22,056 nt of DNA. Origin: a virus. A program made the translations under genes and the position numbers. Below the pieces are notes generated by a model. That model was not told the origin of the DNA. It saw only the letters and a list, made by a program, of their open reading frames with translations, and did not search any database. Below, one piece after another: positions 114-3,625 of this stretch. The stretch lies in the IMG/VR virus record IMGVR_UViG_3300028082_000008, positions 1-22,056 of that record; one strand, written 5' to 3'. Position 1 is the first letter of the stretch. Each line of letters begins with the position of its first letter.

Positions 114-137
114 GTGCGTATCGCGGGGAGAAGGATG
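114..137 (+). promoter_or_regulatory. Repeated translational leader, copy 1
   Basis: The bases GTGCGTATCGCGGGGA (114-129) are identical to 362-377; both are followed by an AGGATG segment and then the start codon of a small rightward gene (142 here, 388 for copy 2). The GGGGAGAAGG part can serve as ribosome-binding site. The flanking CCCC just upstream could pair with GGGG in this copy, but not in copy 2, so a conserved hairpin is not supported. Confidence 0.5.
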
Positions 138-361: not shown

Positions 362-383
362 GTGCGTATCGCGGGGAAGGATG
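362..383 (+). promoter_or_regulatory. Repeated translational leader, copy 2
   Basis: Second copy of the 16-base identical block (362-377), followed by AGGATG and the start codon at 388. It lies between the stop of the 69-aa gene (351) and the 41-aa gene. The GGGGAAGG part is a usable Shine-Dalgarno about 8 bases from the ATG. Confidence 0.5.
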
Positions 384-525: not shown

Positions 526-694
526 GTGCATCCCAGAAGTATCAGTGCGCTGAATAAGCGCAACGCGTCAAGGAATAGCACAAAGTTGCAAGGCAGTTAA
601 AGTGCATCGAGTAGATGCAACACGAGCAACCATTCGAAAATATCGAATAGTTCAAATTGCAGCAAGACGTATGAGTGCGCTGAGCAAGCGCAAC
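526..694 (+). repeat. Array of four boxB-like hairpins in the convergent intergenic gap
   Basis: Four perfect hairpins, each 17 nt with a 6-bp stem and 5-nt loop: 546-562 (TGCGCT-GAATA-AGCGCA), 603-619 (TGCATC-GAGTA-GATGCA), 632-648 (ATTCGA-AAATA-TCGAAT) and 676-692 (TGCGCT-GAGCA-AGCGCA). Three are preceded by AG and followed by AC. The first and last share a longer degenerate unit (526-564 and about 657-694, TGCA..C..GA.GTAT.AGTGCGCTGA..AAGCGCAAC). Read on the plus strand, three of four loops fit G-N-R-N-A, the pentaloop of lambda and P22 boxB RNA, and the first resembles P22 boxB (as I recall it, GCGCT-GACAA-AGCGC). Minus-strand loops do not fit. No T-tract follows any stem, so these are not ordinary terminators. 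The function is inference: an RNA-protein recognition or antitermination-like element, or DNA-level iterons. Confidence 0.65.
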
Positions 695-710
695 ATCATC
701 ATGGATAGCC

Positions 711-1136
711 TCACGACTTGAACAGAGCAACTTCTTCATTGCGACGAGCAAGTAGGCCGGAGTCGCTCACCATCTTCTCACCAACTTCTTTGTAGTGGTA
801 AAGGGGCATCTTAACGGGTGCCCACTTTAGGCCATGAGAAAGCATCTTCACCAGGTCGCCATCCCCCAAGTTATATCCGAATGAGCAGCAAGCATCGAAC
901 TGATTCTGGTTTGCCTGTGGCGCCATTTTGTTGATGGTGGGGTAGAGCTTGGCCGCATCCTTGGCGAGCAGAACCGTGCCGCCTGCTTCATCGATTCCGT
1001 TGGGGAATGATTCGCCGGGAAGCAGGTCGTGCCCATAGGCGATCGCGGGCTTGCCGTTGTCGTTGTAGACCTTCGGCCTGAACCCCTCACAGCGCTTGAT
1101 GAAGTTGATGCCGTTCTGGCTGATGCTCGTAATCAT
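711..1136 (-). CDS. Endolysin, T4-lysozyme-like (GH24) muramidase
   Basis: A 141-residue lysozyme-type endolysin that would cleave the glycan strands of peptidoglycan at lysis. The N-terminal core reads KRCEGF...YNDNGKPAIAYGH, matching the EG..L..Y.D...TIGYGH signature of GH24. Glu17 and Asp26 keep the nine-residue spacing of T4 Glu11/Asp20, but the catalytic Thr position is Ala31 (codon GCG). The C-terminal region keeps the usual QFDACCSFGYNLG helix. There is no signal peptide or SAR segment, so it needs a holin. Start 1136 is preceded by AAAGGAACGAGA and its ATG overlaps the upstream stop (ATGA); the longer frame back to 1292 lacks such a site and would lie inside the neighbour. It is the last gene of the lysis block, converging on the hairpin array. 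Confidence 0.85.
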   Translation of the reverse strand: MITSISQNGINFIKRCEGFRPKVYNDNGKPAIAYGHDLLPGESFPNGIDEAGGTVLLAKDAAKLYPTINKMAPQANQNQFDACCSFGYNLGDGDLVKMLSHGLKWAPVKMPLYHYKEVGEKMVSDSGLLARRNEEVALFKS

Positions 1137-2851: not shown

Positions 2852-3625
2852 CTAAATTGCGCTTAAATCCTGTTCCAAAACTGCTTGCGCAAATCCATTC
2901 GGACTTACACTATTCTTGATCCAGTCGAAGGAAAGCAAGGTATGCGCTTCATCGACGTATTTGAGCCAAAACGCCCAAGTCATCTTGTAGACACTTCCCC
3001 ACGAAATGACGTACACATAATTAGTGTCGTAGCCGGCAACATGCACGCAATGTCCACCTGAGATAGGACCGGCACCGGCAATATCCCAGATTGCACCCGG
3101 GGTCTCGTCCATGTTGTTGGGAACGTCGAAGCCAATGTACAAGCCACCAAACAAGTAAATCGCCAACTTGACTTCGTTGATATCCTGCACGTCGGCGTCT
3201 GCGAACGCGTCGAGCTTGTGCCCGTCCATGCCACCATTACGCCATTGCTTCAAGACATTCAGTTCGATGCCGCCCTGGTCGCTGTCAGGATCGTTCGGTC
3301 TGTAGCCATCCCATGTTTCGTAGAACGACTCGATCACCGAATCAGGCAGCGTGACCATGCTTTCATTTGCCTGTGTCCACACCTGGATAGCGTGTGCGGC
3401 ACCAGCGATCGTGCAGTCGCCCAACTGGTCATTGAGCATCATGCCCCACGATTGCGTGCCCTTGGTCCAGTCCACCGATACAGGAGGTGTTGGCAACACG
3501 GCCTTGTTCAGATACTTTGCCAGTTTGAACGTGCGCGAATCACGCACAACGGCTTTGCGGCCAAGACGGAATTTTCCACACCAAATGATTGGTTCGGGAG
3601 GAAATGGATTAACAGGACGTGCCAT
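2852..3625 (-). CDS. Papain-like (C1-type) cysteine protease
   Basis: A 257-residue protein with the papain-fold landmarks in order: oxyanion Gln67 and nucleophile Cys71 in NDQLGDCTIAGAAHA, and His192 in GGHCVHVAGYD, which matches the papain H-x-V-x-x-x-G-Y pattern. The third landmark, usually N-S-W-G, is I-S-W-G (207-210), so the Asn that orients the His is missing. There is no signal peptide. The start has AAGGAGAAAATC directly upstream. It lies between a one-TM protein and the holin candidate. It might process virion or host proteins, or cut peptidoglycan peptides or host proteins at lysis. The fold is well supported; substrate and whether it is active are not. Confidence 0.7.
   Translation of the reverse strand: MARPVNPFPPEPIIWCGKFRLGRKAVVRDSRTFKLAKYLNKAVLPTPPVSVDWTKGTQSWGMMLNDQLGDCTIAGAAHAIQVWTQANESMVTLPDSVIESFYETWDGYRPNDPDSDQGGIELNVLKQWRNGGMDGHKLDAFADADVQDINEVKLAIYLFGGLYIGFDVPNNMDETPGAIWDIAGAGPISGGHCVHVAGYDTNYVYVISWGSVYKMTWAFWLKYVDEAHTLLSFDWIKNSVSPNGFAQAVLEQDLSAI

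What the first reader, a model, noticed from the sequence alone, without database searches (positions are those of the whole stretch)
526..694. Array of four identical-geometry hairpins with boxB-like pentaloops between convergent operons
Seen: four perfect 17-nt hairpins (6-bp stem, 5-nt loop) within 147 bases, with different stems (two share TGCGCT/AGCGCA) but similar loops GAATA, GAGTA, AAATA and GAGCA. Stems vary while pairing and loop pattern are kept, the hallmark of selection on structure. Known: lambdoid N proteins bind boxB, a 5-nt GNR(N)A-type loop on a short stem; the first hairpin resembles P22 boxB. Three of four loops fit on the plus strand, none on the minus. Inferred: a multi-copy nut-like or protein-titrating RNA placed at the end of the rightward genes, where antitermination would drive antisense RNA into the lysis genes. 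I know of no tandem boxB array of this form.
Basis: partly seen in the sequence, partly recalled or inferred. Interest (0 to 1): 0.78.

Follow-up and report, generated by a model that had tools for sequence, protein, structure and literature searches.

The report
Phage mini-CRISPR array, type V repeats
The hairpins are three drifting copies of a CRISPR repeat separated by two guide sequences, carried by a soil phage that has no Cas protein in the sequenced piece, so it probably borrows a Cas12-type protein, most likely against rival phages.

Summary
The hairpins are real, but they are not boxB. Three of the four (546-562, 603-619, 676-692) are the 3' halves of 37-nt direct repeats at 528-564, 585-621 and 658-694. 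A covariance model built only from other contigs finds exactly these three (E 9.5e-13, 1.1e-8, 3.2e-7). The fourth hairpin (632-648) lies inside a spacer. The feature is a CRISPR mini-array: three repeats and two spacers (565-584, 622-657). The same repeat family forms arrays with a ~71-nt period in 20-odd peat and soil viral contigs (up to 58 repeats each) and in two Acidobacteria MAGs. In two contigs it lies beside cas12, cas4, cas1 and cas2. Other spacers match phages, always with a 5'-YYC PAM, and never in controls. The effector (~745 aa) is closest to Cas12m. Repeat stems covary (40 double-changed cells; 13.6 expected by shuffling). The window and its two nearest array relatives have no detected effector or Cas1. 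Most likely the array is transcribed rightward into crRNAs loaded by a Cas12m-like effector supplied by the host or another phage. Against its nearest relative both spacers are identical (56/56) while the repeats differ. The targets of the window's own spacers were not found.

The parts
528..564 (+). CRISPR repeat 1 (gcatcccagaagtatc + AGTGCGCTGAATAAGCGCAAC); handle hairpin 546-562
   Evidence: covariance model R1, 35.0 bits, E 1.1e-8; same place and one substitution in relative L112/G063
565..584 (+). spacer 1, 20 nt, GCGTCAAGGAATAGCACAAA
   Evidence: identical in arrays of L112/G063, L100/G058 and L090/L125/L132; in IMG/VR found only inside arrays
585..621 (+). CRISPR repeat 2 (gttgcaaggcagttaa + AGTGCATCGAGTAGATGCAAC); handle hairpin 603-619; closest to consensus
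   Evidence: covariance model R1, 48.7 bits, E 9.5e-13
   Evidence: 36/36 identical in L112/G063; seed absent elsewhere in IMG/VR
658..694 (+). CRISPR repeat 3 (tgcagcaagacgtatg + AGTGCGCTGAGCAAGCGCAAC); handle hairpin 676-692; terminal repeat
   Evidence: covariance model R1, 30.2 bits, E 3.2e-7; identical in L112
388..513 (+). 41-aa ORF directly upstream, same strand; in the window, G063 and G058 the array follows this ORF, so it may be co-transcribed
   Evidence: sequence alignment of the three loci; co-transcription is inferred
711..1136 (-). endolysin (phage lysozyme), convergent with the array
   Evidence: PF00959 E 7.7e-17, phrog_7 E 4.8e-20

Best explanation
It is a phage-borne mini-CRISPR array of a type V (Cas12m-like) system: three diverged 37-nt repeats and two spacers, read rightward after the small ORF at 388-513. 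Inferred mechanism: the transcript is cut in the 5' half of each repeat, giving crRNAs made of the 21-nt handle hairpin (AGTGC-NNN-GNRNA-NNN-GCAAC) followed by a guide of about 20 nt. A Cas12m-like effector, not found in this contig and therefore supplied by the host, a co-infecting phage or the missing part of this phage, loads them, finds 5'-YYC-flanked DNA matching the guide, and binds or cuts it. The likeliest role is competition with other phages. Without Cas1-Cas2 the array no longer grows, so repeats drift while handle pairing, loop and guides are kept. Shown: array structure, repeat membership, covariation, PAM and phage targets of sister arrays, effector and cas genes beside sister arrays. 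Inferred: transcription, processing, trans-loading, and the targets of these two spacers.
For: Model from 56 repeats of other contigs finds exactly the three window repeats, next hit E 0.32. Arrays of the same repeat with unique spacers, mostly 33-36 nt, in 20-odd IMG/VR contigs and two Acidobacteria MAGs. cas12 next to arrays; cas12-cas4-cas1-cas2-array in G064 and G070. Six protospacers at >=80% full-length identity, all with 5' YYC, zero for reversed, complemented and shuffled spacers; two hit G058 and G063, the array-bearing relatives of this phage. Covariation. Spacers 56/56 identical to G063 while repeats differ at 6 sites. 3' half conserved 0.84, 5' half 0.57, as expected if only handle and guide are used. 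Spacer 1 (20 nt) is long enough for the 18-bp heteroduplex reported for Cas12m (PMC11013384). Phage mini-arrays that use host Cas proteins against related viruses are reviewed in PMC11656645.
Against: No target found for either window spacer. No effector in the window, G058 or G063 (for the two relatives), and the effector is rare in bacteria (3 of 300 genomes). Repeats 1 and 3 have weak 5' halves, so the array could be a relic. No expression data. Contigs are fragments, so absence of cas genes is not proven.
Confidence: 0.78

Rival explanations
1. RNA anti-CRISPR decoy: the drifted repeats are transcribed as crRNA mimics that occupy a host Cas12 effector and block its immunity; the spacers are incidental.
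For: Array-only phages lack a detected effector and repeats are degenerate; solitary repeat units acting as Racr are known (PMC11656645). Bacterial spacers with this repeat type target such phages, so there is something to evade.
Against: Racr loci are single repeat units; here three repeats flank two spacers that are 56/56 identical in G063 while repeats differ, the opposite of what a decoy needs.
Confidence: 0.12
2. Decaying relic of a larger CRISPR array, with no present function.
For: Only three repeats, two with poor 5' halves; no effector or cas1 in G058/G063 and none seen in the window contig; relatives have 5 to 58 repeats.
Against: All three handles keep perfect stems and GNRNA loops; spacers are identical to those of a relative whose surrounding DNA is ~85% identical; spacer 1 is kept in four array haplotypes. 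Covariation implies selection on the family.
Confidence: 0.15
3. Guide-RNA locus for gene control rather than competition: the conserved short spacers direct a nuclease-weak Cas12 to silence a host gene or a phage promoter.
For: Cas12m silences by binding (PMC10442227, PMC11013384); two phage effectors carry an E in place of the first RuvC Asp; spacer 1 is conserved across phages.
Against: No host match for spacer 1 (1 mismatch) or spacer 2 (3 mismatches) in 398 genomes; known targets of sister spacers are phage sequences.
Confidence: 0.12
4. Tandem boxB/nut-like array bound by an N-type antiterminator.
For: GNRNA pentaloops on short stems, plus strand, phage genome.
Against: The repeat unit is 37 nt with CRISPR-type spacers, cas genes and PAM-flanked phage targets; no boxA on the plus strand nearby; G064 arrays of the same family have non-GNRNA loops.
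Confidence: 0.02

Closest known systems
Virus-borne mini-CRISPR arrays (Medvedeva et al. 2019, reviewed in PMC11656645)
   Same: Few repeats and spacers in a virus with no detected cas genes; sister spacers target related viruses
   Different: Type V (Cas12m-like) repeats; known mini-arrays are described as having repeats identical to the host's, while here the repeats have diverged from each other and from every effector-linked array seen here, keeping the handle fold
Subtype V-M, Cas12m (formerly V-U1)
   Same: Best sequence relative of the neighbouring effector (PADLOC Cas12u1 E 3.8e-29; PDB Cas12m E ~1e-12); 3' hairpin in the repeat; T/C-type 5' PAM; found on mobile elements
   Different: Effector ~690-775 aa instead of ~600; strongest similarity only in the C-terminal RuvC/zinc part; G064 and G070 loci carry cas4-cas1-cas2; RuvC triads differ (D-E-D, E-E-D, D-E-N)
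Other phage type V systems (Cas12j/CasPhi, Cas-lambda)
   Same: Compact phage-encoded Cas12 of ~700-800 aa, repeat with a 3' hairpin (from general knowledge)
   Different: No match to these families among the PDB or PADLOC hits
RNA anti-CRISPRs (Racr)
   Same: Phage-carried CRISPR repeats without cas genes
   Different: Here several repeats with conserved spacers rather than a single repeat unit
Lambdoid boxB RNA
   Same: 5-nt GNRNA-type loop on a short stem
   Different: Part of a 37-nt CRISPR repeat with spacers, cas genes and PAM-flanked targets; no boxA

Membership tests
CRISPR array (mini-array) | two or more direct repeats of one family separated by unrelated spacers of similar length | tested here: met
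   three repeats by covariance model, spacers 20 and 36 nt; sister arrays mostly 33-36 nt. Caveat: spacer 1 is short, and repeats 1 and 3 diverge in the 5' half
CRISPR array (mini-array) | repeats associated with cas genes | tested here: met
   met in sister arrays: cas12 adjacent, cas4-cas1-cas2 in G064 and G070; not met inside the window contig
CRISPR array (mini-array) | spacers match mobile elements beside a PAM | tested here: met
   met for sister arrays, 5' YYC, controls zero; no match for the two window spacers
CRISPR array (mini-array) | transcribed and processed into crRNAs | not testable with these tools
   no RNA data
Subtype V-M (Cas12m) | effector is a Cas12m orthologue | tested here: inconclusive
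   best relatives are Cas12m/Cas12u1 but mainly over the C-terminal half; structure model too poor to use
Subtype V-M (Cas12m) | single crRNA, no tracrRNA | not tested
   the conserved 3' handle hairpin suggests it; no search for anti-repeats was made
Subtype V-M (Cas12m) | DNA binding without cleavage | not testable with these tools
   RuvC residues vary: D-E-D in G054, G064, G219, G283; E-E-D in G070, G071; D-E-N in L143
Lambdoid boxB/nut site | boxA upstream of the hairpin | tested here: not met
   no YGCTCTTWA with up to 1 mismatch on the plus strand near 526-694
Lambdoid boxB/nut site | cognate N-type protein | not tested
   N proteins are too short and variable to search for reliably
RNA anti-CRISPR (Racr) | solitary repeat unit without spacers | tested here: not met
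   three repeats and two conserved spacers

The most novel reading that the evidence does not exclude
These phages carry fixed CRISPR guide loci that have left adaptive immunity behind: without Cas1-Cas2 the repeats evolve freely except for handle pairing and the GNRNA loop, guides are maintained like genes, and a Cas12m-like effector is borrowed in trans from host or helper phage. The effector itself may be a new type V subtype centred on viruses of Acidobacteria.
Probability: 0.4. Interest if true: 0.75.

Novelty: new variant of a known kind. Interest (0 to 1): 0.62.

Why it matters
CRISPR arrays are usually recognised by near-identical repeats. Here is a virus-carried family whose repeats diverge while the handle fold is kept, so standard array finders that need identical repeats could miss such arrays, and the natural variation shows which handle positions a Cas12 effector needs (invariant GTGC/GCAAC, free three-base-pair stem segment, G-N-R-N-A loop). 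It also gives a testable case of phage-phage conflict in peat: arrays of some phages target the phages that carry the window-type array, and an Acidobacteria array targets several array-bearing phages.

Tried and rejected
Rfam on the whole window: no match. boxB/nut: rejected (no boxA; CRISPR context). REP, attC integron and CsrA-titrating hairpins were considered on sequence grounds and dropped once the 37-nt repeat and spacers were seen. Capsid relatives: 50 contigs with relatives of the window's major head protein or 257-aa protein lack the motif, so the array is not a fixed part of that capsid lineage. Most single hits of the repeat core in non-Acidobacteria genomes were treated as chance and not followed up. 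Effector by annotated-record search: none in the isolate phage collection; weak 24% hits in two plasmids. AlphaFold model of the effector: pLDDT 48.5, not used for a fold search. Targets of the window spacers: none in 398 Acidobacteria-family genomes, in fetched loci, or in IMG/VR outside arrays by exact match.

Full report
Observation. The window is a 22,056-base viral record with phage genes: major head protein, tail fiber, endolysin. Between a small rightward ORF (388-513) and the convergent endolysin (711-1136) lie four perfect 6-bp/5-nt hairpins at 546-562, 603-619, 632-648 and 676-692. Four in 169 nt never occurred in 20,000 dinucleotide shuffles (maximum 2). The RNA folds 3.7 sd better than shuffles. 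Three of the hairpins share flanking letters (AGTGC...GCAAC); the AT-rich one does not.

What it is. The same hairpin occurs in an eight-copy array with a ~71-nt period in a related phage contig. A scan of IMG/VR with the commonest stem gave 49 stretches from 20-odd contigs, with up to 31 copies in one stretch; a scan of 84,980 prokaryote genomes gave 11 stretches, of which two Acidobacteria MAGs (L143, L147) have arrays and a third (L144) one copy. Printed unit by unit, these are CRISPR arrays: in L096 the repeat GTAGCAACGTGGTTTGAGTGCATCGCGTAGATGCAAC recurs in 22 units with an unchanged handle and unrelated spacers. Spacers are mostly 33-36 nt.

Is the window a member? A covariance model was built from 56 diverse repeats, leaving out the window and its two nearest array relatives. 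In the window it finds 585-621 (E 9.5e-13), 528-564 (1.1e-8) and 658-694 (3.2e-7); the next hit is E 0.32. So the window holds three repeats and two spacers: 565-584 (20 nt) and 622-657 (36 nt).

Selection on structure. Among the 56 repeats 97.9% of cells pair; 40 cells are changed on both sides against 13.6 in shuffles (0 of 500 as high), and sliding the partner destroys the signal. In a set of 284 distinct hairpins the loop was almost always G-N-R-N-A; the purine at position 3 was not imposed by the collection scans. The loop is not universal: G064 repeats have another loop. The 3' half (handle) is more conserved than the 5' half (0.84 against 0.57). That fits a crRNA whose 5' part is cut away; this step is inferred.

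Effector and adaptation genes. Beside arrays lies a ~745-aa protein (L122, L151, L143; L166, L170) with RuvC motifs and a Cas12f1-like TNB zinc domain. PADLOC calls it Cas12u1/Cas12f (best E 3.8e-29) and its profile's best solved relatives are Cas12m proteins (E ~1e-12). It is present in 5 of 22 array-bearing viral contigs and in 3 of 300 Acidobacteria-family genomes. In G064 and G070 it is followed by Cas4, Cas1 and Cas2 and then an array of mostly identical repeats. G054 and G071 have effector and many diverged repeats but no Cas1. The window, G058 and G063 have a short array and no detected effector or Cas1 (for the relatives; the window is a fragment, so neither gene can be excluded elsewhere in the phage). 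This gives a graded series from complete locus to array only. RuvC residues vary: D-E-D in G054 and G064, E-E-D in G070 and G071, D-E-N in L143.

Targets. Of 245 spacers, six full-length matches of at least 80% were found outside arrays in the fetched DNA; reversed, complemented and shuffled spacers gave none. They come from four spacers. All are preceded by YYC (CTTC, CTTC, ATCC, ATCC, ATTC, GCTC) on the 5' side, as for type V. Spacers of phages G052 and G059 hit G058 (inside a coding region) and G063 (at a gene junction upstream of a zinc-finger protein gene); G058 and G063 are the phages that carry the window-type array. Spacers of the Acidobacteria MAG L147 hit several array-bearing phages. 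The two window spacers have no match.

Relatives of the window array. L112/G063 has the same three repeats at the same place and the same two spacers, 56 of 56 bases, while the repeats differ at six sites, five of them in repeat 2. The surrounding 2 kb is 85% identical, so conserved guides, or a recent exchange, are indicated. L100/G058 has five repeats and shares spacer 1. Spacer 1 is also in L090/L125/L132. The capsid relatives of the window lack the array, so it is an accessory element.

Mechanism. Established: phage mini-arrays that exploit host Cas proteins against related viruses, and Cas12m silencing by PAM-dependent binding with a crRNA alone and an 18-bp heteroduplex (PMC11656645, PMC10442227, PMC11013384). 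Inferred here: rightward transcription, processing in the 5' half of each repeat, loading on a Cas12m-like effector in trans, and attack on another phage. A decoy (Racr) role and decay of a once larger array remain possible.

Known or new. CRISPR mini-arrays in viruses, phage-borne type V systems and Cas12m are known. The 2025 classification says many rare type V variants remain to be found (PMC12669027). I found no paper in the searched library describing this Acidobacteria-phage family or arrays whose repeats diverge with compensatory changes, but the paper by Tordoff et al. on twelve new type V variants was not held, so the effector may already be named there. I therefore call it a new variant of a known kind.

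Noticed in passing
window 114-128 and 362-376 (+): A 15-nt element GTGCGTATCGCGGGG is repeated exactly, each time shortly upstream of a small rightward ORF start (142, 388); 0.07 matches expected by chance, allowing 2 mismatches. Could be a shared leader or ribosome-binding element.
   Followed up: no
window 2852-3625 (-): 257-aa protein (phrog_19005) shared at 36-53% identity with several large soil phage contigs, among them the array-rich G071/G072 phages.
   Followed up: partly
L010 16303-16501: Directly after the eight-repeat array lie 2.5 copies of an unrelated 81-bp tandem repeat.
   Followed up: no
L144 2940-2960 (-): A single handle hairpin (AGTGCATCGAACAGATGCAAC) in an Acidobacteriaceae MAG, between what look like ribosomal protein genes; could be chance or a solitary repeat unit.
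   Followed up: no
L143 155-2373: The chromosomal cas12 of Acidobacteriaceae bog_218 is split by a frameshift near its start and has N at the third RuvC position; its array has three drifting repeats.
   Followed up: partly
L147 4169-4300: Spacers 4 and 5 of this Acidobacteria array are close variants of each other (CTTTAAGGTGTGGGTGTTTACCC / TCTAAGGTATGGACGTTCACCC), as if taken from homologous sites of two related phages.
   Followed up: partly
L118 1837-1913, L125 1983-2258: Some units have hairpin-to-hairpin distances of only 37-50 nt, leaving the 21-nt handle and a 16-29-nt guide with no room for the 5' half of the repeat.
   Followed up: partly
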